Assembly (NCBI RefSeq): GCF_947496075.1
Contig: NZ_CANMBJ010000004.1
Coordinates: forward strand, 434,001 to 498,000
Origin: an uncultured Tateyamaria sp.
Lineage (GTDB): Bacteria > Pseudomonadota > Alphaproteobacteria > Rhodobacterales > Rhodobacteraceae
Direction of reading: 5' to 3'
DNA: 64,000 nucleotides
Made by a program: the position numbers and the translations under genes. This document shows positions 12,357 to 31,872 of this stretch, one piece after another (within the stretch, counting starts at the first letter, position 1; each line of letters opens with the position of its first letter). The notes beneath the pieces were generated by a model. The model did not search any database and had not been told where the DNA came from. It saw only the letters and a program-made list of their open reading frames with translations.

Positions 12357-13544
12357 ATGCCGCATATTCTTCACCTTGGTGTCGGTAATTTCTTTCGCGC
12401 ACACGCTGCGGCGTACACACAAGACACGCCGGGTTGGCAGATCACAGGAGTCAGCTTTCGCTCACCCGCCATCCGCGACGGATTGGCGGCCCAGAATTAC
12501 GACTACAGCCTCATCGTAAAGGATGCAGGCGGTACGTTGATCAAGCCGATCACGTGCATGTCTGATATGCTGGTCGCATCAGAAGGTTCGGTTTCCGTGA
12601 TCGACGCCGTCGCCTCTGACCAGTTTTCGGTCATCACACTGACAGTAACGGAAAAAGCGTATCATCTGGGTCCGGACGGGCAGCTTGATATGGCTTCAGC
12701 CGACATTCAGGCCGATCTGCTAGACACGGGCACAACCGTGATCGGTACGCTGACCCGTGGCTTGGCACGGCGCCAGTCGCCTGTCACCGTTCTGTGTTGT
12801 GACAACCTGCCTGACAACGGATCGAAGGTGGAGCGCGCTGTTCGGGATTTTGCCGCTGCGGCCAAGCTGAATTTGCCCGACACGATCACATTCCCATCCA
12901 GCATGGTTGATCGCATCACTCCCGCCACGACGGACGCTATCCGTGCCGAGGCTGGCGACAAGATGGCTGTCCCGACTGAGAGCTTCACCGAATGGGTCAT
13001 CGAAGATCGCTTTGCCGCCGCGAAACCGGACTGGCCGGGCGTACAATGGGTCGACGACGTTGCCCCGCACGAAATGCGCAAGCTGCGTATGCTGAACGGG
13101 GCGCATTCATTCCTTGCCTATGCCGGTGCGCTGCGGGGTTACACCTATGTGCACGAGGCCATTGCAGACCCCGAGCTGCGCCACACAACACAAGCCCTAA
13201 TGCGCGAAGCGGCGGAGACACTGCCGGACAGTGTTCAAGCACAAGCCGAAGCGTATGCAGACGCCTTGATCAAACGGTTCGAGAACCCCAACCTGCATCA
13301 TCGGCTACGGCAGATCGCAATGGACGGGAGCCAGAAACTGCCCATCCGCATTCTGGCAACTTTGGAAGACCGGGGCAAATCGCCCAGCCCATTGCTGAAA
13401 GCGGCGCTAGACGCCTGGATCGCTTTTGTTCAAGCCGAGGTGGCGGCCGATAGCGCGCTGGACGATCCGAAAGCGGAGGAGCTTGTTACCGCTTGCAAAT
13501 CTCCAGAACCCGATGCCGCGCTACGCGCCGTGATTGGTGCCTAG
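12357..13544 (+). CDS. Fructuronate/tagaturonate reductase-like (mannitol dehydrogenase family)
   Basis: A 395-residue polyol-specific long-chain dehydrogenase. The N-terminus HLGVGNFFRAH is the NAD-binding start of the family, and the catalytic lysine-asparagine-histidine set is in KLRMLNGAHS (K-x4-N-x2-H). It is about 90 residues shorter than E. coli UxuB or mannitol dehydrogenase, with both a short N-terminus and a compact C-terminal domain. Three bases after uxaC, it most likely reduces fructuronate to mannonate (UxuB role) and perhaps tagaturonate to altronate (UxaB role). Its stop overlaps the convergent kdgK by 4 bp. Confidence 0.85.
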   Translation: MPHILHLGVGNFFRAHAAAYTQDTPGWQITGVSFRSPAIRDGLAAQNYDYSLIVKDAGGTLIKPITCMSDMLVASEGSVSVIDAVASDQFSVITLTVTEKAYHLGPDGQLDMASADIQADLLDTGTTVIGTLTRGLARRQSPVTVLCCDNLPDNGSKVERAVRDFAAAAKLNLPDTITFPSSMVDRITPATTDAIRAEAGDKMAVPTESFTEWVIEDRFAAAKPDWPGVQWVDDVAPHEMRKLRMLNGAHSFLAYAGALRGYTYVHEAIADPELRHTTQALMREAAETLPDSVQAQAEAYADALIKRFENPNLHHRLRQIAMDGSQKLPIRILATLEDRGKSPSPLLKAALDAWIAFVQAEVAADSALDDPKAEELVTACKSPEPDAALRAVIGA

Positions 13545-14419
13545 CGGGGCAGGATGGCGCCACGATGCGCAATGACGCGTGACGCCAGATCATGACCCGC
13601 ACGCAGAGCGGCATCTTGAGGCTCCCCAGTCAGCGCCGCCGCCAAATAAGCACCATTGAAGCTGTCGCCTGCCGCTGTTGTATCCACAACCTTGGACGCT
13701 GCGGGATAGGTGCCGGAGGCGCCGGTCTCAAGGCAAAGCGGGCCAATCTCACCACGCTTCAGAGCACCTGAACGGCCCAGCGCAAGAAATCGTGCCGTGA
13801 CCGCATCAGCGGTTTTGCCGGTCAGCTCCATCTCGTCATCAATGGAAGGCAACGCAATGTCACAAAGCGCCCACATCGCCGCGATCATTTCACGGGCCGT
13901 GTCCTGATCTTCCCACAGGCGCGGTCGGTAGTTGCTGTCAAAAACCAGGCGTCCGCCCCGCTGCCGAAAGCCTTGCAGCCAATTGATCAAGGCCGCGCGC
14001 GTGGTTGCTGGCATGATCGCGAGCGTGATGGCTGACGTGTAGATCACATCATAGGGTTCGAGGGCGGAAAAATCCGGATCCTCAGAAGTTAGAAAAACCG
14101 AACGTGCTGCGGAGGTATCGCGCCAATAGGTAAAGCTGCGTTCGCCGCTGTCATCGGTCGTGATGGCATAAAGGCCCGGTGTCCCTTCGGGATCACGCTC
14201 AACCGCACGGATGCCAATATCTTCCGCCTCTATCGCCGCGACGATCCGGTCCGAAAAGGCGTCTGTGCCAAGGCGGGTCACATAGTCGACCTTCAGTTCC
14301 GGTGCGTTGCGTTTGAGGTAGATGGCCGTGTTCAACGTGTCGCCGGCCACGCGCACTGCGGCCTCTGCATCATCCATCGACAGCTCAATCATCGCCTCGC
14401 CTATGGCCGCAATCTTCAT
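13541..14419 (-). CDS. kdgK: 2-keto-3-deoxygluconate kinase (PfkB family)
   Basis: A 292-residue PfkB/ribokinase-fold sugar kinase. The N-terminus GEAMIEL and the C-terminal signature DTTAAGDSFNGAYL (catalytic aspartate, anion hole) are intact. KdgK phosphorylates KDG to KDPG; assignment to KDG rests on the surrounding UxuA/UxaA/UxaC genes. It is the last gene of the long operon that begins with the TRAP transporter, coupled to the upstream permease by ATGA. The KDPG aldolase needed for the next step is not in the window. Confidence 0.9.
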   Translation of the reverse strand: MKIAAIGEAMIELSMDDAEAAVRVAGDTLNTAIYLKRNAPELKVDYVTRLGTDAFSDRIVAAIEAEDIGIRAVERDPEGTPGLYAITTDDSGERSFTYWRDTSAARSVFLTSEDPDFSALEPYDVIYTSAITLAIMPATTRAALINWLQGFRQRGGRLVFDSNYRPRLWEDQDTAREMIAAMWALCDIALPSIDDEMELTGKTADAVTARFLALGRSGALKRGEIGPLCLETGASGTYPAASKVVDTTAAGDSFNGAYLAAALTGEPQDAALRAGHDLASRVIAHRGAILPR

Positions 14420-15309
14420 GCCTTATCCTTTCGTGCCGTGCGCTGCCATATGATCAAGCCGGAGACGACAATGATCGCTGCGCCAACCAGCGTCCAACCG
14501 TCCGGCACATCGCCGAAGACAAGGTAACTTGCAAGCGCCAGATACAGCAGGAAGCTGTAGGTGTAGGGCATTAGCGTATTGGCCGGGGCGTATGCGTGTG
14601 CGCGCGAGAAAATCTCGTGCCCCGCCCATCCCCAAACGCCAAGCCCGATCATAAGTGCCCATTGCAGCGAAGTTTCTGGCGCGGTCCACACCATCCAAGC
14701 CAAGGGGGCCAGCGCCACGGCGCCAAAAGCTCCCATCCAGAACTGCATCGTTTCCGCCGCCACTACACCAGAAATCTTGCGCGTGATGATCGAATAGAGC
14801 GCCAGTGAAAACGCGTTGTAGACGTTCAGGAATGCAATCGCGTGAAAGCTTGCATCAAAGGGACGGATCACCACCAGCACGCCCGTGAACCCAAGGATGA
14901 TCGCAAACCACCGCCAAGGGCCTACCCGTTCACCCAGCAAGGGCCAACTGAGGAAACACACGATGATTGGGGCAGAAAACATGATCGACCCGACCACCGT
15001 CAGCGGCAGGTAGTTCAGGGTGATGAAGTTAAACAACGTGGCCGACGCCAACAGGAACCCCCGCAGCAGTACCAGGCCCATATGCGCGGATTGAAAATTC
15101 GACCACCGCATGCCCTTGCGCAACAAAAGCGCGGTTGAGATCAGAAAATGCGGGAAGTACCGCATGAAGGCGAGTTGGAATGCAGGCAGCCCCGCCAGCA
15201 ACAGCCACTTCACCGACGTGTCGATGAGCGTAAAGAACGCATAGGCCCCCAGCGTCATTGCGATGCCGAGGGCCGCGCGGTCTTCGGTCGGATGGGCGGC
15301 GATCGCCAC
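14416..15309 (-). CDS. EamA/DMT superfamily permease
   Basis: A 297-residue membrane protein with about ten hydrophobic helices in two EamA repeats, as in drug/metabolite transporters. Translation appears to start at GTG 15309, two bases after the stop of the preceding gene. A transporter in addition to the TRAP system may import a second substrate or export a by-product or overflow acid of the pathway. Direction and substrate cannot be read from the sequence. Confidence 0.87.
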   Translation of the reverse strand: MAIAAHPTEDRAALGIAMTLGAYAFFTLIDTSVKWLLLAGLPAFQLAFMRYFPHFLISTALLLRKGMRWSNFQSAHMGLVLLRGFLLASATLFNFITLNYLPLTVVGSIMFSAPIIVCFLSWPLLGERVGPWRWFAIILGFTGVLVVIRPFDASFHAIAFLNVYNAFSLALYSIITRKISGVVAAETMQFWMGAFGAVALAPLAWMVWTAPETSLQWALMIGLGVWGWAGHEIFSRAHAYAPANTLMPYTYSFLLYLALASYLVFGDVPDGWTLVGAAIIVVSGLIIWQRTARKDKA

Positions 15310-15311
15310 TC

Positions 15312-16199
15312 TTAGCCTTTGAACCGGTCAGCGAAGAAATCGACTTGCAGCGGCACCATCTCTTCCCCACGCCCGGCGTCGATGGACCCCCGCAGGCTGT
15401 CCAGCGTGCTGCCCGACATCATGGATTGCACGCCCGCATCGTCGCACATCTGGGCGTAGTACCCGACATCTTTGGCCGCATTCTTGATGGAAAAGGCAAG
15501 CTGCTGATCATCGCCCTGCAACGCGTAGGCGGTCACGAAATCCATCATCCCGGACTTGAGCGGCCCTGCCGACATCACATCATACAGCCCCTGCCGGTCC
15601 ACACCCATCACATCTGCAATGGCATAGCTTTCAGCCATCGCATTGGCACAGGCCTGCGCGTAGAAATTGTTGATCAGTTTGATGGTGTGCCCGGTGCCCA
15701 AGGCCCCGAGGTGAAAGACATTCTCGCCCAAATCGTCCAGCACCGGCTTGACCTTATCGAACGCCGCCTTGTCCCCGGAGCCCATCAGGTTCAACAAGCC
15801 GTCCTTGGCGTGCATCGGCGTGCGCCCAATGGGGCAGTCCAGCATCGTGCCACCAACTGCCGCAACCTCCGCTCCCAATGCCTTGGTCGACGCAGGCAGT
15901 GACGTGCCGAAATCAATCACCACCGCGCCCGATTTCAGCCCGGCAATCACGCCGTCATCCCCGCGCATCCGCGCCTCGACGTTTTCCGATGTGTCCATGC
16001 ACAGCATCACGATGTCCGACCCCTCGGCCACGGCCTTGGCTGTTGTCATCTCGACCGCCCCTCGCTCAACTGCGCGATCAACATACGTTCGGGTACGGTT
16101 TGCGATCACCACCAGATCATAGCCTTGATCCTGCAACCGGCCCACCATGGCTCCGCCCATCAGGCCGAGGCCGATAAATCCAATCGTTGGCTTGCTCAT
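15312..16199 (-). CDS. Beta-hydroxyacid dehydrogenase (3-hydroxyisobutyrate dehydrogenase family, YihU-like signature)
   Basis: A 295-residue protein with an N-terminal NAD-binding motif GFIGLGLMGGAM and the catalytic lysine K174 in GHTIKLINNF. At the position where most family members read DAPVSGG, this one has DCPIGRT (G125-R126-T127). The same GRT is found in sulfolactaldehyde reductase YihU, where the arginine contacts the sulfonate; the residue matching YihU S178 is alanine here. Hence it may act on an anionic three- or four-carbon hydroxyacid, but substrate is unresolved. It follows PhyH1 by one base with an AAGGAG site inside the preceding gene's end. Confidence 0.85.
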   Translation of the reverse strand: MSKPTIGFIGLGLMGGAMVGRLQDQGYDLVVIANRTRTYVDRAVERGAVEMTTAKAVAEGSDIVMLCMDTSENVEARMRGDDGVIAGLKSGAVVIDFGTSLPASTKALGAEVAAVGGTMLDCPIGRTPMHAKDGLLNLMGSGDKAAFDKVKPVLDDLGENVFHLGALGTGHTIKLINNFYAQACANAMAESYAIADVMGVDRQGLYDVMSAGPLKSGMMDFVTAYALQGDDQQLAFSIKNAAKDVGYYAQMCDDAGVQSMMSGSTLDSLRGSIDAGRGEEMVPLQVDFFADRFKG

Positions 16200-16200
16200 A

Positions 16201-17097
16201 TCAACTCTCCTTCGCGGGAATGGTATCGAAGGCGCGCGTCTTCAGCCCCTTCTGAATTTCATAGATGGAAATCGGCACATCCGGCTGTGGTTGCGGGATG
16301 CGGATCGGGATGTCTTTCAGGCGCGGGGTCAGCGTTGGCTCACCGCACAGCATCCGGGTGTTGTAATCTTCGATCCCATCCCACTTGGTCATACTGCCCA
16401 TGATCGGAAAGGCATCCGCCGCCATCATCTCGTAGAACAGAATGCGCCGCGCCCGGTTGCTCGTATTCAGAGCCGACCCATGCACAATCCGACCATGGTG
16501 AATACTGATCGACCCGGCAGGCCCGGTCAGCGGCACCGCATCCGCCATATCCAGCCCGTGCGCCTCGGGCAGCATTGCGCCGGCAAAGACCCCATCCACG
16601 TGATGATCATAAACCGGCCCCTTATGCGAGCCCGGGAATACCATCAGCGGCCCGTTCTCTTCAGCCATATCGTCGATGCATATACCAATGGCCAGAATGT
16701 CGTCGTTGGTATGCGGATAGAATGCATAGTCCTGATGCCATTCGACCGCCGCCCCATAACCGGCCGATTTCATGTTCAATTTGGTAGTGTGCAGCCGCAG
16801 GTTCGACCCAATCAGATCGCGGGCGGGGGCAAGCACGTGGTCGGAATACATCAACTCCAGCACCACGTCCGAAATCATATGCGGTAGCTTGATCCGCCGC
16901 AGGCGCGGATCATCGGCAGAGTGACTGTCCTCCAGATCAAGCCGGTCATTGCTCTCGGTCATGGTCGCGGCCTCAGCCTCGAACCGTGCAATCTCGTCCC
17001 GGATCTTGGTCAGCCAGTCGTCGGGGATCTGGTTTGCAACCAGCAGATAGCCCTGCTCATCATACTGTGCTTTCTGATCTGCAGTCAGACACTCCAT
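16201..17097 (-). CDS. Phytanoyl-CoA dioxygenase (PhyH) family Fe(II)/2-oxoglutarate oxygenase 1
   Basis: From ATG 17097, which overlaps the stop of the UxaA-like gene (TGATG), the protein has 298 residues; a longer reading from 17121 lies inside that gene. The facial triad is H121-x-D123 (EWHQDY) and H206 (RIVHGSA), with an arginine for 2-oxoglutarate ten residues further. Family members hydroxylate or oxidatively cleave small molecules. Position between a dehydratase and a dehydrogenase of a sugar-acid operon suggests it oxidises the imported substrate or an intermediate, for example removing a methyl or other substituent (inference). Confidence 0.88.
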   Translation of the reverse strand: MECLTADQKAQYDEQGYLLVANQIPDDWLTKIRDEIARFEAEAATMTESNDRLDLEDSHSADDPRLRRIKLPHMISDVVLELMYSDHVLAPARDLIGSNLRLHTTKLNMKSAGYGAAVEWHQDYAFYPHTNDDILAIGICIDDMAEENGPLMVFPGSHKGPVYDHHVDGVFAGAMLPEAHGLDMADAVPLTGPAGSISIHHGRIVHGSALNTSNRARRILFYEMMAADAFPIMGSMTKWDGIEDYNTRMLCGEPTLTPRLKDIPIRIPQPQPDVPISIYEIQKGLKTRAFDTIPAKES

Positions 17098-18596
17098 CAC
17101 ATCACAGCCCCGATCTGCCACGGCACGAATTCGTAGTCACCAAGGCCCTGTGCTTCAGATTTCGACATCTCTCCGCTAGCAACCCTCAAGAACAGTTCGT
17201 AAATCTCGCGGCCCTTCTCTTCGAGGCTCACACCCTCCGAAAGCATCGCACCGGCGTTCACATCCATATCCTCGATCATGCGACCATACATTTCCGTATT
17301 GGTCGCCACCTTGATCGTCGGTGCGGGCTTCGAGCCAAAGGCCGACCCCCGCCCGGTGGTAAAGCACACGAGGTTGCAGCCCCCGGCGATCTGCCCCGTC
17401 ACACTCGCCGGATCATAGCCGGGAGAATCCATGAAGGTGAAGCCACGCGCCCGCACGCTATCGGCGTATTTGTAGACACCCGTCAGCGGCGTGGTCCCGC
17501 CCTTGGCAGCAGCGCCCAACGACTTCTCCAAGATCGTGGTCAGGCCACCGGCCTTGTTGCCGGGACTTGGGTTGTTGTCCATCGATCCCTTGTTACGGGC
17601 GGTATAATCCTCCCACCAGCGGATCAGATCGATCAGACGCTCACCCGTCGCCTGATCGATGGCGCGGGCGGTCAGCAGATGCTCTGCGCCGTAGATCTCC
17701 GGCGTCTCGGCCAGCACACCCGTCCCACCCTGTGCCACCAGCAGATCGGTGGCATATCCAAGTGCAGGGTTCGCGGTAATCCCCGACCACGCATCCGACC
17801 CGCCGCATTGCAAGGCCACTTTCAACTCGGATGCCGGACACGGTTCCCGCACCGCCTGATTTGCCAGTGGCAACATGGCCGCCACCTTCTCGATCCCTTT
17901 GTCGACCGTCTTTCTAAGTCCGGCGACAGATTGGATATTCATCGCTTGGAACAACGGCCCCTGTTTTAAGCCATAGGCGTCGAGCAGCCAGTCAATCTGG
18001 TTCATCTCGCAGCCCAAGCCAACCATCAGCACCCCTGCATGGTTCGGGTGACGGGCATAGCCCCACATGACGCGCTGCAGCGCCTCGAACCCGTCGCCAT
18101 TGTCCGCCATGCCACAACCCGTCCCGTGAACAAAGGCGACCACCCCATCCACATTCGGATAGTCCGCCAGCAGCTCAGGCGTGAAATGCGCCGCGATCAT
18201 CCGTGCGGCCGTGGCAGAACAGTTCACGGACGTGACGATCGCAATGTAGTTCCGCGTACCAACCTGCCCATTCTCGCGCCGGTAGCCCATGAATGTATCG
18301 CCCGAGACTGGAGCGACAGGGCGCAGGTTTGAAGCAAAATCATAGGCCACATCCGTGCCCCGAAACTCGACATTGTGAGTGTGTACGTGATCCCCAGCGG
18401 CAATGTCCCCGGCGGCGTAGCCGATCACCTGTGCGTATTTACGGATAACGTCGCCCTTGGACATGGCCCGCACCGCGATCTTGTGGCCCGACGGAATCAA
18501 TGCCCGGGTTGGCACGCCGTCTACGTCGACACCGATCTCCAACGTGCGCGTGGCGGTAACGACCGTGTCGCTTATGTCTAGACGAACAAAATCCAT
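17097..18596 (-). CDS. UxaA/GarD family dehydratase (altronate dehydratase-like)
   Basis: A 499-residue protein with an N-terminal SAF-like domain (about residues 1-95) fused to the UxaA C-terminal domain, as in altronate and galactarate dehydratases. Visible family segments include GYRRENGQVGTRNY, HGTGCGM, GLGCEMNQ, LQCGGSDAWSG and the C-terminal TTGRGSAFGSKPAPTIKV. The expected reaction is altronate to KDG, which would give this organism the galacturonate branch next to uxuA. Close relatives include sulfolactate sulfo-lyase subunits, so the substrate is not certain. It lies 10 bp after PhyH2 and overlaps PhyH1 by one base. Confidence 0.88.
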   Translation of the reverse strand: MDFVRLDISDTVVTATRTLEIGVDVDGVPTRALIPSGHKIAVRAMSKGDVIRKYAQVIGYAAGDIAAGDHVHTHNVEFRGTDVAYDFASNLRPVAPVSGDTFMGYRRENGQVGTRNYIAIVTSVNCSATAARMIAAHFTPELLADYPNVDGVVAFVHGTGCGMADNGDGFEALQRVMWGYARHPNHAGVLMVGLGCEMNQIDWLLDAYGLKQGPLFQAMNIQSVAGLRKTVDKGIEKVAAMLPLANQAVREPCPASELKVALQCGGSDAWSGITANPALGYATDLLVAQGGTGVLAETPEIYGAEHLLTARAIDQATGERLIDLIRWWEDYTARNKGSMDNNPSPGNKAGGLTTILEKSLGAAAKGGTTPLTGVYKYADSVRARGFTFMDSPGYDPASVTGQIAGGCNLVCFTTGRGSAFGSKPAPTIKVATNTEMYGRMIEDMDVNAGAMLSEGVSLEEKGREIYELFLRVASGEMSKSEAQGLGDYEFVPWQIGAVM

Positions 18597-18605
18597 GGGC
18601 CTCTC

Positions 18606-19550
18606 TCAGGCACAGAATGGGGCGTCGGACGCCCAACGGTGGATCGGAATGTGAGGCTGATGGGCAAGCCTGCTGCGGGTATTAAACCACATATCACGCC
18701 AGCCGCGCCAATCCCGCAATGCTGTTTCGGGCGCCATGCGACTGCGGGCAACAAAGCTCGGAAAATGATCGCGCCCGGTGGGCTGCCCCGTCACGTTGTA
18801 ACGCAGATCAAAGGACCAGCGAAATCCCTGAGACCAGTTTGGCAGTGATGCATGAGGCACCAAAGGATGAAACAAGACGGCACCACCAGATTTGACTGGT
18901 AGCGGCACAGCATCCGAGGTGTCGAGATGTTTGGGCGCAATGGCAGTTTGAACCTGTGGGCAATGTGGCAGAAGACCGTCATCAATACCGGGCAGCACCT
19001 GCAGACACCCATTTTCGACGGTCGCATCCGTAATCGCCACCCAGGCCGTGACCATATCGGTCGCATCAGCCTCTTCGTGGCCAACGCCACGATCCTGATG
19101 CCAGTCAGTGCTAGTGATATGCGCGCGCGCCTCGCCCTCTGCCAATTGGGGGCTCGGCGGTTTGATCCGCACATGCTGGATTGGATTCGAGGTGATCTCG
19201 GGCCCGATCAGATCCTCAATCACGTCCAACAGCCGATCCTCGACAACAAGATCAAAGATCGCCGGGCCGAAATGCATGGGGCAATCGGCCTCGATTTCTC
19301 CGCCCGGCAGGCTGATATCCATTGGCTGAAACCAATCGCACCCGACGGCATAGGACACGCTTAGTTTCTCCCAGAAGCTCAAACCCTCGCCGCCGGGCAC
19401 ATGCCCCTCCCCTTCCCACCGGGCATAAAGCTGATCCATCAGTGTCGCGTATTCCACCCGCACTGCCGAGATCACCGGCGCAGGGATGACATCCTCTACC
19501 ACAAGGTAACCTTGGGTCTGGAACTGCGCGACTTGGCTCGCGGTCAGCAT
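18606..19550 (-). CDS. Phytanoyl-CoA dioxygenase (PhyH) family Fe(II)/2-oxoglutarate oxygenase 2
   Basis: A 314-residue PhyH-fold protein with metal ligands H151-x-D153 (DWHQDRG) and H233 (VPHASL), and the co-substrate arginine likely R244. It is only distantly similar to PhyH1 in the same operon, so the two probably catalyse different steps or act on different substituents. It sits between the TRAP permease (10 bp upstream) and the UxaA-like dehydratase, i.e. directly after uptake, which suggests action early on the imported molecule. Confidence 0.87.
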   Translation of the reverse strand: MLTASQVAQFQTQGYLVVEDVIPAPVISAVRVEYATLMDQLYARWEGEGHVPGGEGLSFWEKLSVSYAVGCDWFQPMDISLPGGEIEADCPMHFGPAIFDLVVEDRLLDVIEDLIGPEITSNPIQHVRIKPPSPQLAEGEARAHITSTDWHQDRGVGHEEADATDMVTAWVAITDATVENGCLQVLPGIDDGLLPHCPQVQTAIAPKHLDTSDAVPLPVKSGGAVLFHPLVPHASLPNWSQGFRWSFDLRYNVTGQPTGRDHFPSFVARSRMAPETALRDWRGWRDMWFNTRSRLAHQPHIPIHRWASDAPFCA

Positions 19551-19559
19551 GGTGCCCTC

Positions 19560-21182
19560 CTAAAGTAGGATCGAGATGATGGGCGGCCAGATCAACAGCA
19601 CCGATAGGGCAATCAACTGGATACCGATAAAGGGCAGGAAGCCTTTGAAGATATCGGTCAGTTTGATGTGCGGTGGCGCCACAGATTTCAGGTAGAAAGC
19701 CGCCGGACCAAAGGGTGGTGACAGGAACGACACCTGCATGTTCATACAGAATACCACGCCGAACCAGATCGCCACATGGCGTGGGTTCAGTTCACCGAAC
19801 AGGCCAATCTCGTCAATCGGCAGCTTCAGCACGATCGGCAGGAACACCGGGATGATCAGCAGCACGATGCCGACCCAGTCCATGAACGCGCCCATGAATA
19901 GCAAGATCACCATCATCATCAGAATGACCAACATGGTGGGCAGTTCGGACCCGACGATGAAGTCGGCCACGTAAGTCGGACCGCCAGCAATTGTGTAGGC
20001 ACCGGCAAGGGCAGTCGCCCCGATGGTGACCCAGATAATTGTACCGGTCGATTTGAGGGTCCGCATCAGGGACTCCCACACCAGGTCAAACGATGCTTCT
20101 CCGCGCAGCAGGGCGATCACGAACACGGCCATGGCACCCATGCCTGCAGCCTCGGTGATGCCTGTGATACCGCCATAGATCGACCCCATGACAACCCCGA
20201 TCACAACGATGGGCGGGACAAGACCCTTGCCCATCGACCAGCCCAGCGCGGTGCGGGTCCGGCCAAATACGAACATGGCCAAAACCACGCTCGCCGCCAG
20301 CATGCTGCCAAAGATACCGATGTATTCTGCCGTGCCCCAGAACGCTGCTGCGCCTGTATTGGCCGCATTCGACCCCGAGAATTCGAAGAAGCTGGCGCGC
20401 AGGAACAAGGCTGCCGAAAACCCGCCGACAACTACGTTCAGGAAGGCGAGGAACAGCGCAGTCTTCTCGCGCCCCTGCGGCTCGCCTTCGACTGGGTCGG
20501 GCAGTGGTGCATCCTGGGGCCGTAGTTGCGTGCGGATGATGATGTAAATAATGATGAACGACGCCAGCATAAACCCGGGGATGAAGGACGCCGTGAACAG
20601 TGCCTTGATCGAGGTTTCGGTAATTAAGCCGTAGATGATCAGCACGATCGATGGCGGGATCATGGTGCCAAGCGAGCCGGAGGCGCAGATCACGCCGATT
20701 GCCAGATTCTGGTTGTAGCCAAGCCGCAGCATCTGCGGCAACGCGATCAGACCCAGAAGGACCACCTCACCCCCGATGATACCGGACATAGCGGCCATGA
20801 TCACAGCCATGATGGATGTCACGATGGCAATGCCGCCCCGGGTCCGGTTCAGCCAGATGTTCAGGGACGAATACATCTCTTTCGCGATGCCGGAGCGTTC
20901 CAGCAATGCCGCCATAAAAATGAAGAGCGGAATGGATATGAGAACGTAGTCCGTTAAGAGCCCGTATATTCGCTGGGCCAGGATATTGAGTGGCCCTGCC
21001 CCCGGTCGCCCGGTCAGAATGCCATCACCAAAGGTCCATGGGGCCAGCAGCAACTCCGGCTCGAATTTCATGACCAGCACAGCAACGGCGAGGATGGCAG
21101 AGGCCAGGCCAAGGGGCATCCCGATAGCAAGGAGAAGGATCAGCCCCAGCATCAGGACAAGCGAAATAGTACCGATATCCAT
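19560..21182 (-). CDS. dctM: TRAP transporter large permease subunit (DctM)
   Basis: A 540-residue protein with a dozen or more hydrophobic helices and DctM-typical loops (GLIALPQMLRLGY, SLGTMIPPSIVLIIYG, GGITGITEAAGMGA). It is the Na+-driven transport subunit of a tripartite ATP-independent periplasmic transporter. It is longer than the common 430 residues because of inserted hydrophobic and hydrophilic stretches around residues 225-310, a feature of the large DctM subgroup that pairs with long DctQ proteins. It is 4 bp downstream of dctQ. Confidence 0.93.
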   Translation of the reverse strand: MDIGTISLVLMLGLILLLAIGMPLGLASAILAVAVLVMKFEPELLLAPWTFGDGILTGRPGAGPLNILAQRIYGLLTDYVLISIPLFIFMAALLERSGIAKEMYSSLNIWLNRTRGGIAIVTSIMAVIMAAMSGIIGGEVVLLGLIALPQMLRLGYNQNLAIGVICASGSLGTMIPPSIVLIIYGLITETSIKALFTASFIPGFMLASFIIIYIIIRTQLRPQDAPLPDPVEGEPQGREKTALFLAFLNVVVGGFSAALFLRASFFEFSGSNAANTGAAAFWGTAEYIGIFGSMLAASVVLAMFVFGRTRTALGWSMGKGLVPPIVVIGVVMGSIYGGITGITEAAGMGAMAVFVIALLRGEASFDLVWESLMRTLKSTGTIIWVTIGATALAGAYTIAGGPTYVADFIVGSELPTMLVILMMMVILLFMGAFMDWVGIVLLIIPVFLPIVLKLPIDEIGLFGELNPRHVAIWFGVVFCMNMQVSFLSPPFGPAAFYLKSVAPPHIKLTDIFKGFLPFIGIQLIALSVLLIWPPIISILL

Positions 21183-21186
21183 GGGC

Positions 21187-22077
21187 TTAGTCCTTTGTCG
21201 ACACGTGTTGGCCGGTCACGTCGAGGTCGCCGACCCCTTCGTTTGCCACTTGCGCCTTGATGCGCTCAATCTCTTCTTCATCGAGGTCTTCGCCCCCGTA
21301 ATGCACTTCCTCGGCATTCCAATCAGAGATCAGGTTGATGACGGCCTGAATGGCCACCATGCCGACGACAAACAGCACCATTGGCTTCATCGTGGCTGGA
21401 ATCGGTGGATCAAATGCCGTGCCGAAGGTCTCCCAACGGTAGAACTTGTCGAATGCCTCGCCATAGCCTCCGTAGATCAGGAAGAAGGCGAATACGACGA
21501 TGAGTACGGTCGAGATGGTGTCGAATATCCGCTGCACCGAACGCGGAACCGCGTCGTACAAAAGTACAATGCGAATGTGGCTGCGCTGTTGCATGGCGTA
21601 AAGGCCGGCGCACAGGAACACAAAGCCCGCAAGCCACAGGCTAAGTTCATTCGCCCAAAGCGTTGGCGCCTCAAACACATAGCGGAGGATCACCTCGTAC
21701 AGCATCACGCTGGTCAGAAGCACGATCAACATCATGGTGACACGACCAATGAAGACGGCCAAACGGTCCGCAGCACGCCAACTTTCAAATTCCATGCCTG
21801 CACGCTGCACAGTTCGGATACCGAGATACCCGAAGGCAACAACACCTATGGCAGCAAGCCAGTCCACGATGTCAGCAAAGCCGCCGAACAGCCCGCCCAT
21901 ATTGGGGGTGACATCATTGCGTTTGAACAGAGCCGATAACTTGTCGAACTGGGATTCGTCGGTTGGGGGATAGAAGTCGAGCGTGAAGGCTGGCATGTGC
22001 CAGACCACCCAGCCCGCGCAAAAGATGAATGCCAATGGCACAAGCCACTCTATCGGAGTGCCGGAGCGCACCTGCAT
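21187..22077 (-). CDS. dctQ: TRAP transporter small permease subunit (DctQ)
   Basis: A 296-residue membrane protein, longer than the usual 160-200 residues. After a first helix (about 10-27) and a soluble stretch there is a second helix (about 69-85), then the four-helix DctQ core (about 105-270) with ANELSLWLAGFVFLCAG. A GGGGGAC site precedes the ATG. It couples the periplasmic binding protein to DctM. The acidic C-terminal tail (EDLDEEEIERI) is cytoplasmic or linker-like. Confidence 0.88.
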   Translation of the reverse strand: MQVRSGTPIEWLVPLAFIFCAGWVVWHMPAFTLDFYPPTDESQFDKLSALFKRNDVTPNMGGLFGGFADIVDWLAAIGVVAFGYLGIRTVQRAGMEFESWRAADRLAVFIGRVTMMLIVLLTSVMLYEVILRYVFEAPTLWANELSLWLAGFVFLCAGLYAMQQRSHIRIVLLYDAVPRSVQRIFDTISTVLIVVFAFFLIYGGYGEAFDKFYRWETFGTAFDPPIPATMKPMVLFVVGMVAIQAVINLISDWNAEEVHYGGEDLDEEEIERIKAQVANEGVGDLDVTGQHVSTKD

Positions 22078-22098
22078 CGCAAAGTCCCCCTATGGTAT

Positions 22099-22168
22099 GA
22101 AAAAACCCGCGCGCATCTTGCCTTGATTTGCGGCGGGTGACTTGGGGCCCCGCGTAGCGGGACCCCAA
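22099..22168 (-). terminator. Intercistronic structure between dctP and dctQ (attenuator or mRNA stabiliser)
   Basis: Just after the dctP stop there is a strong stem, 22142-22153 pairing with 22157-22168 (TTGGGG-x-CCCGC type, one mismatch, 3-nt loop). Further down the transcript a second stem, GCGGGT 22133-22138 with ACCCGC 22105-22110, is followed by a run of six T on the minus strand. Partial termination here would make more binding protein than permease, as is common in TRAP operons. Folding was judged by eye. Confidence 0.5.
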
Positions 22169-22176
22169 AGGATCGC

Positions 22177-23202
22177 TTACTCGGAGACGAGGCCCAATTG
22201 ACCGAGATAGGTCAGGTGTGCGTCGACCAGCGCCTTAGCTTCAGGCGTGTCTGCGAACTCAGGCCATGTGGCCTGTGCTGCGGCACGGAACTTGGCCAAC
22301 TCTTCGGGCGCCCACTGGCTCAGCGTCACGCCTTGCTCCCTCAGCTGGGCTGCAGCTTCGGCGTTCTTCTTCTCGAAGGTCAGTGCGGTGCGCAGAGCGA
22401 GGGCTTCCATGGCCACCTTCATGATGCGCTGATGCGATTCAGGCATCGCGTCAAAAACCGCCTTGTTGCACGCAAGGTGGTCGGACGGCATCGAGTGGAA
22501 GCCGGGGAAGTTGGCATATTTAACGATGTCATACAGACCCAAGCCCACGTTGTTGGCCAGACCCGATGCGTCCGCACCGTCGATGATACCAGTTTCCAGA
22601 GCCGTAAAGATCTCGGTGAAGTCCATCACGATGGGCGACGCGCCCAGCTTTTCAAAGATCTTGGTTTCCATGCCGGGAGGCGAACGGAATTTCCAGTCCT
22701 TGAAGTCGGCGACCTTCTCGATCGGCTTCGAGGACGCAAAGGATTCCTGACCGTAAACCCACCAGCCGATCAACTCCATGCCGTACTTGTTGTACAGCGG
22801 CGCCGCAGCTTCCTTGCCACCGCCGAAATACAGCCAGCTCAGCTGCTGATAGGGGGTTTCATAGCCGCCCATGATGTCGCCCACGAACTGGAAGGCGGAG
22901 TTCTTGCCGGTCTGGTAGCCACCACCGGTCATGTCGCAGTCCAAGATGCCCGTGGAGGCCGCGTCGAAGGTTTCGACCGACTTCACGACGGACGAGCTGT
23001 AGAACATCTCGACTTCGATCTCGCCACCCGACATCGTCTGGATGTCTTCGATGTATTGCGCAGCGAGCTTGCCCGAGACAGTCTCGGGGGCATAGTGCGT
23101 TTGAATCCGTAGCTTCGTTGTTTCTGCCGACGCCGTAAGCGCCGTGGTGGCCGCAAGAGCAGCAACAGCAGCGACCGAAGCCGCCCTCTTCAGAAATGTC
23201 AT
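22177..23202 (-). CDS. dctP: TRAP transporter substrate-binding protein (DctP)
   Basis: A 341-residue periplasmic protein: residues 1-26 are a signal peptide (basic start, Ala-rich core, cleavage near TASAE). The mature part has DctP-family segments such as FRSPPGMETKIFEKLGASP and ALETGIIDGADAS. The SPPGM arginine-containing strand is where TRAP proteins bind the substrate carboxylate. It resembles the 2-oxo-acid/TakP side of the family, so a sugar acid or related carboxylate is plausible; exact ligand unknown. First gene of the nine-gene minus-strand operon ending with kdgK; GGGAGG precedes the ATG. Confidence 0.92.
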   Translation of the reverse strand: MTFLKRAASVAAVAALAATTALTASAETTKLRIQTHYAPETVSGKLAAQYIEDIQTMSGGEIEVEMFYSSSVVKSVETFDAASTGILDCDMTGGGYQTGKNSAFQFVGDIMGGYETPYQQLSWLYFGGGKEAAAPLYNKYGMELIGWWVYGQESFASSKPIEKVADFKDWKFRSPPGMETKIFEKLGASPIVMDFTEIFTALETGIIDGADASGLANNVGLGLYDIVKYANFPGFHSMPSDHLACNKAVFDAMPESHQRIMKVAMEALALRTALTFEKKNAEAAAQLREQGVTLSQWAPEELAKFRAAAQATWPEFADTPEAKALVDAHLTYLGQLGLVSE

Positions 23203-23399: not shown

Positions 23400-24056
23400 A
23401 TGCCCTACGATACCGACATCTTCGAAACACTGCGCTATCGCCTTATGACAAACGCTTTTGAGCATGGTCAAAAGGTGCGGGCTGAACACTTGCGTCAAGA
23501 GTTTGGCTGTTCCGCAAGCACGATTCGAGAGGTGTTGTTCAGACTGTCGACTCTCGGTTTGGTTGAGTTCCAGGAACAGCGCGGCTTTCGCGTTCCGAAA
23601 AAGTCACGCGAGGTGATTCACGAATTGACGCATCTCCGTGTGCTGCTTGAGGCCGAAGGTACGGTGATGTCGATCCGGCGCGGCGGCGTCGCGTGGGAGG
23701 CCCGGTTGACTGCCGCCCATCACCAGCTCAGCCACCTTGAAATGCGGCTGAACACCGCGACCGACCGATCACCTTTTGTCGATCTCTGGTTCGGAGCCGA
23801 GGCACAGTTCCATGAAACCCTCATTTCGGCCTGCGGATCGCAGACCCTGATCGATACCCATCACCGTGTGTATTGCCGGTTCCGCCAGCAATTGATGGTG
23901 GAGGACCGCGACTTCAATTTCATCTCGAACAACATCATGCACCATCAGCATATTCTGGATGCTGCGATGGCCGGAGACGAAGATCTGACCCGGCAGAAGA
24001 TTCACGATCATCTGGCGAGACACCTGATGGATGCGGACCAGATCGAACCTGCCTGA
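23400..24056 (+). CDS. GntR family (FadR/FCD subfamily) transcriptional regulator
   Basis: A 218-residue regulator: winged helix in residues 1-70 (VRAEHLRQEFGCSASTIREVL) and an all-helical FCD ligand domain from about 75 to 212 with histidines of the usual metal site (QFHETL near 140; C-terminal HDHLARH). FCD regulators commonly sense sugar acids such as hexuronates. It is divergent from the TRAP/uronate operon, its probable target. The start is uncertain: the AAGGAG at 23369 is about 25 bases from this ATG and no closer good site is seen. Confidence 0.88.
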   Translation: MPYDTDIFETLRYRLMTNAFEHGQKVRAEHLRQEFGCSASTIREVLFRLSTLGLVEFQEQRGFRVPKKSREVIHELTHLRVLLEAEGTVMSIRRGGVAWEARLTAAHHQLSHLEMRLNTATDRSPFVDLWFGAEAQFHETLISACGSQTLIDTHHRVYCRFRQQLMVEDRDFNFISNNIMHHQHILDAAMAGDEDLTRQKIHDHLARHLMDADQIEPA

Positions 24057-24159: not shown

Positions 24160-25584
24160 ATGCGCGATCCACACTCCCAGACGCCCCGCGAGGCGACCCA
24201 TCTTGTCGTGGGAGATGGCATCACTGCCCTCGCTTTCGTTAAGCAATGCAGCCTTGCCGCCGGTGATCACCTCGTCGTGTTGGGGCGAAGCGCGTCTCAA
24301 TTGGGCCGAGGTGCCGCATATGCAAAGGGTAGAGAAGACACACCGTGGCGATACGCCTATTTGCTCAACTCGCCGGCGGATGACATCGATCCTGCCTTTG
24401 CACGCTGGCTGTCCGACCGCTGGGACATGGTGGCCGACACGATGACCGGACGCGCGCCGAACTGGATGCGGGCAGCGCAACCGCTGGTAAACGCAGGGGA
24501 CGTCTATGGCGTAAATGCACCCCGCGAATTCTATGGCGATTTCATGGAGGAACAGGCCGAAGAGGCTTTGGCGCATCACAGGGCTCAGGGAGTGCAGGTG
24601 AGCTTGATCGACGACTGCGCGCTTACTCTGCAAAGCGGATCAGATGGCACGACTATCCAGACCGAAGCCGGTCGCACGATCACCGCCCGAGCCGTGGACG
24701 TCGCACCCGGCGGTCCGTCCACCCTGCGCCTCGAAGGCGATGACGGCGCATTTGCCGTCCCAAGCGTCTTTGGAAACGAGGAAGAGATCGCGGAACACAT
24801 CAAACGTAGAGCCGAGGTTTTCTGCATCGGTGGCAACGCGGCAATGCTTGATGTCCTGCGCCTGTGTCAAAGCCTAATCCCAGAGGAACAGTTGCGCTTT
24901 GTTGCCTGTGCCCCAGATGGTGAAATCCCCGCTGCACTTGTTCCGCGCCTACCCCGCAAACTGACCCGCCCCAATCTGTCATCCGGGCATGACACGGCTA
25001 AAACTTTCCTGGCCGAAGTCCAGCGCGAGATTGATTTGGCCCAAAAGGCCGGAGACGAAATGCGCGAGATCCGGGCGGGCTTTCGCGCGCATTTTCTGGC
25101 GAACCCGCTCACCAACTACATCGATGATGCAGATCAGGCCCGACGCGTCCCAGCGCAGCTGCGCTTCTGGTTGCGAGGCGGCACGCGAGACACGATCATG
25201 GACATGCACAGGCTGGTTGAAGAGGGCGGTGCACGGATGATTAAAGGCGCAGTCAAAGCCATTGAGCATGGGCCAGATGGGGCCAAAGTACGGATCGTTG
25301 ACGCTGACGGAGGCGAGACGGTTCACAACACCGGATTTGTCATAAACTGTGCGGGTGCCGGACCAACCTCTCACTACGACCCATTGACCGAGAACATGCT
25401 CACTCAGGGCCTGATCGGCATCTGTCCAGTCTCAAAAGGCCTGACTGTAGGTCCGCAATGCAAAACCGGAGCACCCGGCGTACGTTACCTCTCCCCCGCC
25501 ACAACGGTCATTGGAGACGAGGTCATGGCGATGCCGCTTTACGACGCCCACATGCTGCGCACCTATGCGGCACGGGCGGGTTAA
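24160..25584 (+). CDS. FAD/NAD(P)-binding protein (YdhS-like)
   Basis: A 474-residue protein with an N-terminal FAD-binding segment (LVVGDGITALAFVKQ), an internal second dinucleotide-type segment (EVFCIGGNAAMLDVL, about residue 225) and a C-terminal NCAGAGP. This layout matches the FAD-NAD(P)-binding family that includes YdhS. Catalysed reaction unknown. It follows gntR by 103 bp on the same strand and its stop overlaps the convergent denD-like gene by 4 bp. The ribosome binding site before the ATG is weak. Confidence 0.75.
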   Translation: MRDPHSQTPREATHLVVGDGITALAFVKQCSLAAGDHLVVLGRSASQLGRGAAYAKGREDTPWRYAYLLNSPADDIDPAFARWLSDRWDMVADTMTGRAPNWMRAAQPLVNAGDVYGVNAPREFYGDFMEEQAEEALAHHRAQGVQVSLIDDCALTLQSGSDGTTIQTEAGRTITARAVDVAPGGPSTLRLEGDDGAFAVPSVFGNEEEIAEHIKRRAEVFCIGGNAAMLDVLRLCQSLIPEEQLRFVACAPDGEIPAALVPRLPRKLTRPNLSSGHDTAKTFLAEVQREIDLAQKAGDEMREIRAGFRAHFLANPLTNYIDDADQARRVPAQLRFWLRGGTRDTIMDMHRLVEEGGARMIKGAVKAIEHGPDGAKVRIVDADGGETVHNTGFVINCAGAGPTSHYDPLTENMLTQGLIGICPVSKGLTVGPQCKTGAPGVRYLSPATTVIGDEVMAMPLYDAHMLRTYAARAG

Positions 25585-30104: not shown

Positions 30105-30947
30105 ATGAAACTCGTAAGATACGGTGACACTGGTCACGAAAAGCCCGGCCTCATGGACGGCGAAACGCTGCGCGATCTAAGCGGCCACATCGATGACATC
30201 CACGGCGCCACGCTGGACGACGCCACGATCGACAAACTGCGTGCCATAGACCCGGCCACCCTGCCCGCAGTCGATGGCAATCCCCGCATCGGCCCCTGCG
30301 TCGGCAATATCGGCAAGTTCCTCTGCATCGGCCTCAATTACTCCGACCACGCCGCCGAACAAGGCCTGCCCATCCCCGAGCACCCCATCCTCTTCTTCAA
30401 GGCGAACTCCGCCATTGTTGGCCCCAATGACGACGTCGTCATGCCGCGCGGGTCGAAACGCTCGGATTGGGAAGTCGAGCTGGGCGCCGTCATTGGCAAG
30501 ACCTGCAAGTACGTCTCAAAGGCCGACGCGCTCGACTACGTGGCAGGCTACTGCATCATAAATGATGTGTCAGAGCGCGAGTTCCAGCAGAACCTCACGG
30601 GACAATGGACCAAGGGGAAATCCTGCGACACATTCGGCCCCACAGGTCCGTATCTTGTCACTCGCGACGAAATCGAAGACCCGCAAGCGCTCGATATGAG
30701 CCTGTCGGTCAACGGCCAGCGGATGCAGACAGGCAACACCGCCACCATGATCTTTTCCGTGGCCGAGATCATTGAACACCTCAGCCAGCTCTTCACCCTG
30801 CACCCCGGCGACGTGATCAGCACAGGCACACCCCCCGGCGTCGGCGACGGGATGAACCCGAAAACCTACCTTAAGGTGGGCGACGTCATGGAACTGGACA
30901 TCGCTGGCCTCGGCACCCAACGGCAAGAGGTGAAACAGGATGCCTGA
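30105..30947 (+). CDS. Fumarylacetoacetate hydrolase family protein (2,4-diketo-3-deoxy acid hydrolase-like)
   Basis: A 280-residue FAH-fold protein. Metal and substrate elements are visible: GLNYSDHAAE, the EVELGAVIG strand, DVSERE-x5-LTGQW-x-KGKSCDTFGP and STGTPPGVG. This motif set is shared by ureidoglycolate lyase-like and 2,4-didehydro-3-deoxy-L-rhamnonate hydrolase proteins. With the SDR and dehydratase genes before it, C-C bond hydrolysis of a 2,4-diketo acid to pyruvate plus lactate or glycolate is the best guess. The stop overlaps the next gene by 8 bp. Confidence 0.87.
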   Translation: MKLVRYGDTGHEKPGLMDGETLRDLSGHIDDIHGATLDDATIDKLRAIDPATLPAVDGNPRIGPCVGNIGKFLCIGLNYSDHAAEQGLPIPEHPILFFKANSAIVGPNDDVVMPRGSKRSDWEVELGAVIGKTCKYVSKADALDYVAGYCIINDVSEREFQQNLTGQWTKGKSCDTFGPTGPYLVTRDEIEDPQALDMSLSVNGQRMQTGNTATMIFSVAEIIEHLSQLFTLHPGDVISTGTPPGVGDGMNPKTYLKVGDVMELDIAGLGTQRQEVKQDA

Positions 30948-31872
30948 TCTTCTGCAAATCGGCGGCATCACCGATACCATGCGTGACCGTCTGTCCGAAC
31001 GGTTCACCATCCATCAGGCCAGCGGCGATTATCCCGCAGACGCGATCACCCACATCGTCACCAACGGCCATGACGGCGTGCCTGCGGATATCCTTGCCAA
31101 GTGCACAAACGCCAAGGTCGCTGCCAGCTATGGCGTGGGCTACGACGCGATCGACACCGACGCTTGCATCGAACGGGGCATCATTGTCACCCACACGCCC
31201 GACGTGCTGAACGCCGAGGTGGCAACGACGGCGATCATGCTCATGCTCACCAGCTTCCGCAATTTCCTGTCGGACGAGGCGCACGCCCGCTCTGGCAACT
31301 GGGAGACAAACGGCAACGCCCCACTATCGCGCAGCGCGGACAACCGGCGCGTCGGCATCCTCGGCCTCGGCCGCATCGGCCAGGCCATCGCGGACAAGCT
31401 CAAAGCGTTCGACGCCGACATCCACTATCACACCCGCAGCGAAAGGGACGTGCCCTACACCTACCACGCCAACCTCGTGGACATGGCAAAGGCGGTCGAG
31501 GTGATCATCTGCATCACCCCTGGCGGTCCCTCGACGCATCACATCGTCAACGCTGATGTGATGGAAGCACTCGGCCCCGAAGGGACGCTCATCAACGTCT
31601 CGCGCGGCTCGGTGATTGACGAGGCCGCGATGGTCGCCGCCCTCCAATCCGGTAAGCTCGGATACGCCGCCCTCGACGTATTCGAGGAAGAACCCAAAAT
31701 CCCCGACGCGCTCAAGACCATGTCCAACGTCATCCTTCTGCCCCACGTGGGCAGCGCCACGCATGAAACGCGCGCCGCGATGGGCACGTTGGTCGTCGAC
31801 AACCTCATCAGCCATCTCGACAACGGGCTGGTGATCACACCCGTGCCGGAAACCAAGCACCTCAATGGCTAA
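30940..31872 (+). CDS. D-isomer-specific 2-hydroxyacid dehydrogenase
   Basis: A 310-residue protein with substrate loop [13 protein letters not shown]-binding [11 protein letters not shown], the catalytic arginine ([10 protein letters not shown]), glutamate (DVFEEEP) and histidine (LLPHVGSAT). Glyoxylate/hydroxypyruvate reductases are the nearest type. Overlaps its upstream and downstream neighbours by 8 bp each, so it belongs to the sugar-acid operon. It could recycle glycolate or lactate produced by the FAH-family hydrolase. Confidence 0.9.

What the first reader, a model, noticed from the sequence alone, without database searches (positions are those of the whole stretch)
13541..23202. Uronate TRAP operon containing two different PhyH oxygenases
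One nine-gene transcript encodes uptake (TRAP), two Fe(II)/2-oxoglutarate oxygenases, a UxaA-like dehydratase, a hydroxyacid dehydrogenase, a second permease and KDG kinase. Known hexuronate pathways need no oxygenase. I propose that the imported compound is a modified uronate or related acid (for example O-methylated, N- or S-substituted) that is stripped oxidatively, then handled by the Gfo/Idh set, and finally enters the UxaC/UxuB/UxuA/KdgK route. This is the strongest candidate in the window for an undescribed system. No product has been shown.
Basis: inference. Interest (0 to 1): 0.72.

Follow-up and report, generated by a model that had tools for sequence, protein, structure and literature searches.

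The report
Sugar-acid operon with two oxygenases
A marine bacterium carries a gene set that imports an unknown sugar-acid-like compound and seems to oxidise it with two iron enzymes before ordinary sugar-acid breakdown; the set recurs widely in its relatives, but what it eats is still unknown.

Summary
The nine genes are there. On the minus strand, 23202 to 13541: dctP, dctQ, dctM, PhyH-B, a UxaA/GarD-type dehydratase, PhyH-A, a 3-hydroxyacid dehydrogenase, an EamA permease, a KdgK-like kinase; a GntR/FCD regulator is divergent. Both PhyH proteins keep the recalled iron and 2-oxoglutarate residues. The arrangement recurs in many genera of its family and some Rhizobiales.

Of 198 same-family genomes, 57 have the UxaA ortholog; 31 of 36 PhyH-B genomes and 22 of 22 PhyH-A genomes are among them. 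Neither oxygenase is obligatory: of 38 TRAP-linked uxaA loci, 24 have PhyH-B, 10 have PhyH-A and 12 have neither. KdgK is near 12 of 38. 'Uronate TRAP' is therefore not supported: the uronate genes are neighbours in a subset, and DctP resembles lactate/2-ketoacid binders.

Best reading: a modular acid-sugar locus in which the oxygenases unlock a modified substrate for the dehydratase. The substrate is unknown. An amino-acid-like substrate is a serious rival: amine-oxidase genes, and once an aminotransferase, sit between PhyH-A and the hydroxyacid dehydrogenase in sister operons.

The parts
22177..23202 (-). dctP, TRAP solute-binding protein
   Evidence: PF03480, 162 bits; nearest PDB sequences 4pe3, lactate-binding 2zzv, ketoacid-binding 7ug8
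21187..22077 (-). dctQ, TRAP small permease
   Evidence: PF04290
19560..21182 (-). dctM, TRAP large permease (540 aa)
   Evidence: PF06808
18606..19550 (-). PhyH-B, putative Fe(II)/2-oxoglutarate oxygenase, first enzyme after dctM
17097..18596 (-). UxaA/GarD-family dehydratase with N-terminal SAF domain
   Evidence: PF20629, PF04295, PF08666; nearest PDB galactarate dehydratase 6u7l; below the galactarate-dehydratase cut-off, 370 of 731 bits
16201..17097 (-). PhyH-A, putative Fe(II)/2-oxoglutarate oxygenase (ORF as listed begins at 17121)
   Evidence: PF05721 123 bits; H129, D131, H214, R225 invariant in 34 of 34 (numbering from the 17121 start; roles recalled); AF2 pLDDT 88.7; nearest folds leucine hydroxylase GriE and proline hydroxylase H11
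15312..16199 (-). 3-hydroxyacid dehydrogenase (HIBADH family) with GRT and KLINN motifs
   Evidence: PF03446/PF14833; motifs aligned with sulfolactaldehyde reductase 6sm7; GRT in 100 of 101 orthologs
14416..15309 (-). EamA/DMT permease
   Evidence: PF00892
13541..14419 (-). PfkB kinase, KdgK-like
   Evidence: PF00294; best NCBIfam hit 2-dehydro-3-deoxygluconokinase 287 bits, cut-off 400
23400..24056 (+). divergent GntR/FCD regulator, probable local regulator
   Evidence: PF07729, PF00392
25581..26555 (-). D-erythronate-dehydrogenase-type oxidoreductase, recurrent neighbour
   Evidence: NCBIfam NF043036 344 bits, above its cut-off of 325; first gene of the operon in L182 and L185
27545..28291 (+). 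SDR dehydrogenase, recurrent neighbour
   Evidence: PF13561
28288..30093 (+). IlvD/EDD dehydratase, recurrent neighbour
   Evidence: PF00920/PF24877; above the cut-off of NF009560
30105..30947 (+). FAH-family hydrolase, recurrent neighbour
   Evidence: PF01557; 420 of 500 bits for 2,4-didehydro-3-deoxy-L-rhamnonate hydrolase
30940..31872 (+). 2-hydroxyacid dehydrogenase, recurrent neighbour
   Evidence: PF02826/PF00389
12357..13544 (+). UxuB-like mannitol-dehydrogenase-family protein, convergent neighbour in a subset
   Evidence: PF01232/PF08125
10350..12353 (+). UxaC glucuronate isomerase (the listed start is too far upstream; Pfam match at residues 225-648)
   Evidence: PF02614 236 bits
6636..7838 (-). 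UxuA mannonate dehydratase
   Evidence: PF03786 342 bits

Best explanation
A modular acid-sugar catabolic operon. The TRAP transporter imports a small carboxylate that the dehydratase cannot use as it stands. PhyH-B, the first cytoplasmic enzyme encoded, oxidises it with O2 and 2-oxoglutarate; PhyH-A does a second oxidation nearer the dehydratase step. The most likely chemistry is hydroxylation at a carbon bearing a hetero-atom (O- or N-substituent, or a ring ether), which collapses to free the ordinary sugar-acid skeleton. The hydroxyacid dehydrogenase sets the oxidation state, and the UxaA-type enzyme removes water to a 2-keto-3-deoxy acid. That product leaves by KdgK and KDPG aldolase, or by the neighbouring SDR/FAH route to pyruvate plus a small hydroxyacid. 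Shown here: gene content, conservation, intact motifs and positional linkage. Inferred: every substrate, the order of steps, and that the oxygenases act on the imported compound.
For: PhyH-B follows dctM directly in 95 of 116 pooled copies and ENO2 (itself after dctM) in 8; it precedes uxaA in 92 of 116 (80 of the loci were picked by PhyH-B, and some species are in the pool twice). PhyH-A (57 copies) follows Gfo/Idh 22, UxaA 17, AroE-like 7, PhyH-B 3, IlvD 3, ENO2 2, DAO 1, none or edge 2, and precedes the HIBADH in 38. In an unbiased set of 198 same-family genomes (one per genus), 31 of 36 with PhyH-B and 22 of 22 with PhyH-A are among the 57 with the UxaA ortholog, against 5 and 0 of the 141 without (recount 98; Fisher 1e-15 and 4e-14, genera not independent). 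PhyH-B and PhyH-A are adjacent without uxaA in L193 (TRAP-PhyH-B-PhyH-A-EamA), L194 and L078. Enolase-superfamily proteins whose PDB relatives include 3,6-anhydro-L-galactonate cycloisomerase (5xd7) and galactonate dehydratase (5olc) occupy the slot of PhyH-B or lie within dctPQ in sister operons. A UxaA/GarD-family D-arabinonate dehydratase of a non-phosphorylative pentose pathway is published (PMC6336799, passages). The genome has two KDPG-aldolase-family genes.
Against: No substrate is known. 12 of 38 TRAP-linked uxaA loci have neither PhyH and Thalassococcus S3 plasmid pS3C has the operon without either, so the rest works without them. 5 of 36 PhyH-B genomes lack the UxaA ortholog and 13 of 80 PhyH-B loci have no uxaA within reach. 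No gene that would deal with a released fragment (formaldehyde, sulfite, amine) was recognised in the window operon. The DctP group resembles binders of small keto and hydroxy acids rather than C6 acids.
Confidence: 0.42

Rival explanations
1. The imported compound is an amino-acid-like or betaine-like osmolyte. The PhyH enzymes hydroxylate it as free amino-acid hydroxylases do; nitrogen is then removed, leaving a hydroxylated acid that the dehydrogenase and dehydratase treat as a sugar acid.
For: PhyH-A is nearest in sequence and fold to leucine hydroxylase GriE, trans-proline hydroxylase H11 and ectoine hydroxylase. In sister operons a SoxA/N-methyltryptophan-oxidase-like FAD oxidase (99 bits, cut-off 257) precedes the HIBADH in 13 of 14 copies and follows PhyH-A in 8 of 14. 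A class I/II aminotransferase (Pfam for L182 and L186; homologs in L185 and L175) sits between PhyH-A and HIBADH in L185 by coordinates, after EamA in L182 and before uxaA in L186.
Against: No amine-handling gene is in the window operon. Aminotransferase is in only 4 loci and the oxidase near only 3 of 56 uxaA-selected loci. UxaA, IlvD, FAH, enolase-type and erythronate-dehydrogenase neighbours are sugar-acid enzymes.
Confidence: 0.25
2. A sulfonated acid is the substrate: PhyH breaks or prepares the carbon-sulfur compound, the HIBADH is a sulfolactaldehyde-type reductase and the UxaA relative resembles sulfolactate sulfo-lyase.
For: The HIBADH shares GRT and KLINN with sulfolactaldehyde reductase 6sm7, conserved in 100 of 101 (GRT) and at least 97 of 101 (KL-x-NN, from the top eight patterns listed) orthologs. 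Sulfolactate sulfo-lyase belongs to the UxaA/GarD superfamily (PMC6336799 passage). The isethionate binder 8t9t is among the DctP relatives.
Against: The serine next in the 6sm7 motif, recalled as a sulfonate ligand, is alanine or glycine in the patterns listed. 8t9t is only ninth in the DctP list. No sulfite exporter or sulfite dehydrogenase was recognised among the recurrent clusters that were annotated, although not every cluster was.
Confidence: 0.08
3. The oxygenases act on something other than the imported compound and share the promoter for regulatory or historical reasons.
For: Only co-location is shown. PhyH-B relatives also occur elsewhere: a 40% homolog on a Pantoea plasmid lies beside another PhyH, a radical SAM protein and an O-methyltransferase, which looks biosynthetic. 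PhyH-A is alone, with no labelled neighbour, in L195.
Against: Recurrent slots across many genera and the co-occurrence with the UxaA ortholog.
Confidence: 0.15
4. An ordinary hexuronate operon with dispensable PhyH passengers, as the TRAP-KdgK-UxaC/UxuAB neighbourhood suggests.
For: KdgK-like gene in the operon and UxaC, UxuB, UxuA close by.
Against: KdgK near only 12 of 38 TRAP-linked loci; UxuB or UxaC within the fetched stretch in 5 of 56 (flanks limited); catalytic residues strictly kept in both PhyH.
Confidence: 0.1

Closest known systems
Non-phosphorylative 'Route III'-type acid-sugar pathway of Herbaspirillum huttiense (PMC6336799)
   Same: A UxaA/GarD-family acid-sugar dehydratase (there D-arabinonate) and dehydrogenase-plus-hydrolase steps after the 2-keto-3-deoxy acid; here SDR and FAH genes are recurrent neighbours
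   Different: No oxygenase and no TRAP named in that paper's main text (0 occurrences of 'dioxygenase' and of 'trap'); the window adds PhyH-B, PhyH-A, HIBADH, EamA and KdgK
Hexuronate pathway UxaC/UxuB/UxuA/KdgK
   Same: All four gene types are within the window
   Different: Linked to the oxygenase operon in a subset only; no oxygenase in the known pathway (recalled)
Galactarate pathway GarD / tartronate-semialdehyde reductase
   Same: GarD-like dehydratase and a HIBADH-family reductase in one operon
   Different: Both below the curated cut-offs (370 of 731 and 147 of 341 bits); no aldolase gene in the operon
PhyH-family hydroxylases of small free acids (GriE, proline hydroxylase H11, EctD)
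   Same: Fold and residues of PhyH-A
   Different: 19-26% sequence identity over the fold matches listed (top rows); not tied to an import and dehydratase operon in what was seen here

Membership tests
Fe(II)/2-oxoglutarate oxygenases, PhyH family | PhyH Pfam domain above cut-off | tested here: met
   123 and 88 bits, cut-off 22; for PhyH-B only the C-terminal half of the profile, 108-211 of 213, aligns
Fe(II)/2-oxoglutarate oxygenases, PhyH family | HxD...H iron triad and 2-oxoglutarate arginine kept (motif roles recalled) | tested here: met
   Invariant in 34 of 34 aligned rows for each
Fe(II)/2-oxoglutarate oxygenases, PhyH family | 2-oxoglutarate-dependent turnover | not testable with these tools
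   Needs purified protein
UxaA/GarD dehydratase superfamily | GD_AH second and C-terminal domains with SAF domain | tested here: met
Galactarate dehydratase (GarD) | Curated equivalog score TIGR03248 | tested here: not met
   370 bits against a cut-off of 731
KdgK (2-dehydro-3-deoxygluconokinase) | Curated equivalog score NF052444 | tested here: not met
   287 bits against 400, though it is the best hit
Uronate TRAP transporter | Binding protein related to, or shown to bind, uronates | tested here: inconclusive
   Best sequence matches are 4pe3 and lactate and ketoacid binders; ligands of the other listed relatives are not stated in the output
Non-phosphorylative route with SDR and FAH | UxaA/GarD dehydratase, SDR and FAH hydrolase together | tested here: inconclusive
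   All present in the window; near the 38 TRAP-linked loci SDR 27, FAH 18, but the FAH is below its equivalog cut-off (420 of 500) and the genes are divergent from the operon
Sulfolactaldehyde reductase | Curated equivalog score NF012005 | tested here: not met
   131 bits against 348
D-erythronate dehydrogenase (25581-26555) | Curated equivalog score NF043036 | tested here: met
   344 bits against 325

The most novel reading that the evidence does not exclude
An undescribed aerobic pathway of marine Alphaproteobacteria in which a TRAP importer delivers a substituted or ring-ether sugar acid and two successive 2-oxoglutarate oxygenases open or strip it, replacing in function the enolase-superfamily cycloisomerase or dehydratase that holds the same slot in sister operons.
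Probability: 0.35. Interest if true: 0.68.

Novelty: new variant of a known kind. Interest (0 to 1): 0.5.

Why it matters
Marine algae release many modified acids, and oxygenases used to open sugar acids for catabolism would be a new entry point into carbon cycling by the Roseobacter group. The locus is common enough (PhyH-B in 36 of 198 same-family genomes at 56% identity or more) that its substrate should be findable, and the natural variants with and without the oxygenases make the question directly testable.

Tried and rejected
Uronate-only reading: weakened by the KdgK, UxaC and UxuB tallies and the DctP relatives. Obligatory oxygenases: rejected by loci without them. PhyH-B as a member of a known substrate class: no close PDB relative by sequence (best 35 bits); by fold the top rows are tied and mixed: ThoJ, MysH, PHYH, GriE, H11. 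Conserved GntR operator: my first pattern matched 0 of 44 intergenic stretches, not even the window; a looser one matched 3 of 44 (shuffle mean 0.2), GTTG-N11-CAAC 2 of 44 (0.2) and a TTGT/ACAA one 0 of 44 (1.1); an exact GAAATT-N6-AATTTC inverted repeat is in 9 of 44, without a shuffle control. The HIBADH motif regex failed and was replaced by an alignment. Promoter-like sites: 2 found, shuffles 4.8; terminator-like: 12, shuffles 8.3, so uninformative. Terms found no paper. Searches gave listings only, none opened. led to PMC6336799, of which I saw passages only. Rows dropped before counts: G194, 43% PhyH-B, and PhyH-A copies at 45-49%, a second group; identity cut-offs for 'ortholog' are mine. 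The 57 UxaA orthologs include the window's genome; the 56 loci do not.
Full report
WHAT IS THERE. Spacing runs from a 4-base overlap to 9 bases except for 99 bases after dctP, so co-transcription is likely but unmeasured. PhyH-A probably begins at 17097, in TGATG overlap with uxaA. A GntR/FCD regulator is divergent at 23400-24056. Further genes on both sides are acid-sugar enzymes: UxaC, UxuB, UxuA and Gfo/Idh proteins on one side; a protein above the D-erythronate-dehydrogenase cut-off, a HIBADH-like protein, an SDR, an IlvD/EDD dehydratase, a FAH hydrolase, a 2-hydroxyacid dehydrogenase and an enolase-superfamily protein on the other.

ARE THE OXYGENASES INTACT? In alignments of 34 sequences each, the histidine-aspartate-histidine iron triad and the arginine expected to bind 2-oxoglutarate (roles recalled) are invariant: H151, D153, H233, R244 in PhyH-B and H129, D131, H214, R225 in PhyH-A, numbered from the listed start. 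AlphaFold models reach pLDDT 79.2 for PhyH-B and 88.7 for PhyH-A. PhyH-A is nearest to leucine hydroxylase GriE, human PHYHD1, proline hydroxylase H11 and ectoine hydroxylase. PhyH-B has no close solved relative; its top fold rows are tied and mixed. The two differ clearly, so they are not a recent duplication.

HOW CONSERVED IS THE ARRANGEMENT? A scan of public genomes with PhyH-B returned 80 loci (124 confirmed, best 80 kept), mainly Rhodobacterales with some Rhizobiales bins. Of the 80, 74 have dctM, 67 uxaA, 66 EamA, 59 the HIBADH, 37 PhyH-A and 29 KdgK. These were chosen by PhyH-B, so I also drew loci by UxaA. Of 198 same-family genomes (one per genus), 129 have some UxaA-family match and 57 have one at 66% identity or more, which I take as the ortholog. 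PhyH-B at 56% or more is in 36 genomes, 31 of them among the 57; PhyH-A at 65% or more is in 22, all among the 57; 17 of these 22 also have PhyH-B. Fisher tests give 1e-15 and 4e-14, with the caution that genera are related. A wider draw found PhyH-B in 45 of 292 genomes of the order draw at E of 1e-60 or better; those listed are of the same family.

POSITION SAYS SOMETHING. Pooled over all fetched loci (116 PhyH-B copies, some species counted twice), PhyH-B directly follows dctM in 95 and ENO2 in 8, and directly precedes uxaA in 92. PhyH-A (57 copies) follows a Gfo/Idh gene in 22, uxaA in 17, an AroE-like gene in 7, PhyH-B in 3, IlvD in 3, ENO2 in 2, DAO in 1 and nothing labelled in 2; it precedes the HIBADH in 38 and an FAD oxidase in 8. 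In L193 the unit is TRAP-PhyH-B-PhyH-A-EamA without uxaA, and in L197 and L200 it is a TRAP gene, ENO2, PhyH-A, HIBADH. So PhyH-B goes with import, and PhyH-A goes with a dehydratase or dehydrogenase.

THE OXYGENASES ARE OPTIONAL. Around 56 UxaA-selected loci, 38 have dctM within 9.5 kb. Of these, PhyH-B is in 24, PhyH-A in 10, both in 8, neither in 12; Gfo/Idh in 27, AroE-like in 13, KdgK in 12, HIBADH in 30, EamA in 31 (several contigs end early, which lowers counts). Of the 18 loci without dctM, 3 have PhyH-B and 2 PhyH-A. The plasmid pS3C of Thalassococcus sp. S3 carries the operon with an AroE-like gene and no PhyH, plus the whole glucuronate neighbourhood.

WHAT MIGHT THE SUBSTRATE BE? 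The UxaA-type protein is nearest to galactarate dehydratase among solved structures but far below its curated cut-off. Relatives at 57% identity on other plasmids lie beside FucU-like, SDR and FAH genes in Marivivens and beside L-rhamnose mutarotase and L-fuconate dehydratase genes in Shinella. A family member is a D-arabinonate dehydratase (PMC6336799, passages). In sister operons enolase-superfamily genes sit between dctM and uxaA or between dctP and dctQ; their nearest PDB sequences are an unnamed racemase, 3,6-anhydro-L-galactonate cycloisomerase, galactonate dehydratase and an uncharacterised protein that I recall as galactarolactone cycloisomerase. These point to a sugar acid, perhaps a lactone, anhydro or substituted one. 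Against that stand an amine-oxidase-like gene in the slot before the HIBADH (13 of 14 copies) and an aminotransferase in four loci, with PhyH-A closest to amino-acid hydroxylases. DctP belongs near lactate and ketoacid binders, but the tryptophan-glutamate pair seen in the ketoacid binders is Phe-His-Ser here, conserved in 115 of 116 orthologs as GFHSM, so its ligand should differ. The HIBADH has the GRT and KLINN motifs of sulfolactaldehyde reductase but is far below that family's cut-off.

PROPOSED WORKING. Import by TRAP; oxidation by PhyH-B; a second oxidation by PhyH-A where present; adjustment by the HIBADH; dehydration by the UxaA-type enzyme; exit by KdgK and KDPG aldolase (two PF01081 genes in the genome) or by SDR and FAH. 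Only gene content, motifs and linkage are shown; each reaction is inferred. The EamA permease may export a released product or be a second importer; nothing decides.

VERDICT. It is not shown to be a uronate system. I rate it a new variant of a known kind with an open, testable substrate question.

Noticed in passing
48622-49296 (+): A third PhyH-family reading frame in the window, weak (37 bits, PF05721); the genome has five PhyH matches over cut-off in all.
   Followed up: no
L087 (Thalassococcus sp. S3 plasmid pS3C): Almost the whole acid-sugar neighbourhood, without PhyH, lies on a 46-kb plasmid, so it may move as a block.
   Followed up: partly
L086 11062-15389: On a Pantoea dispersa plasmid a 40% PhyH-B relative lies beside another PhyH, a B12-binding radical SAM protein and an O-methyltransferase, which looks like a small biosynthetic cluster.
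   Followed up: no
25581-26555 (-): D-erythronate-dehydrogenase-type gene above its curated cut-off; it opens the operon in place of the TRAP genes in L182 and L185.
   Followed up: partly
L176 2492-5920: Between dctM and uxaA lie frames of which one begins like a DUF1537-type four-carbon-acid kinase by eye (unverified).
   Followed up: no
about 22140-22176 (-): G+C-rich inverted repeat just after dctP, seen by eye, possibly uncoupling the binding-protein level from the rest; the terminator scan did not list it.
   Followed up: no
L193 ENO at the start, L201, L202: TRAP-ENO3-PhyH-B units without a nearby uxaA show that the import and oxygenase genes can stand alone.
   Followed up: partly
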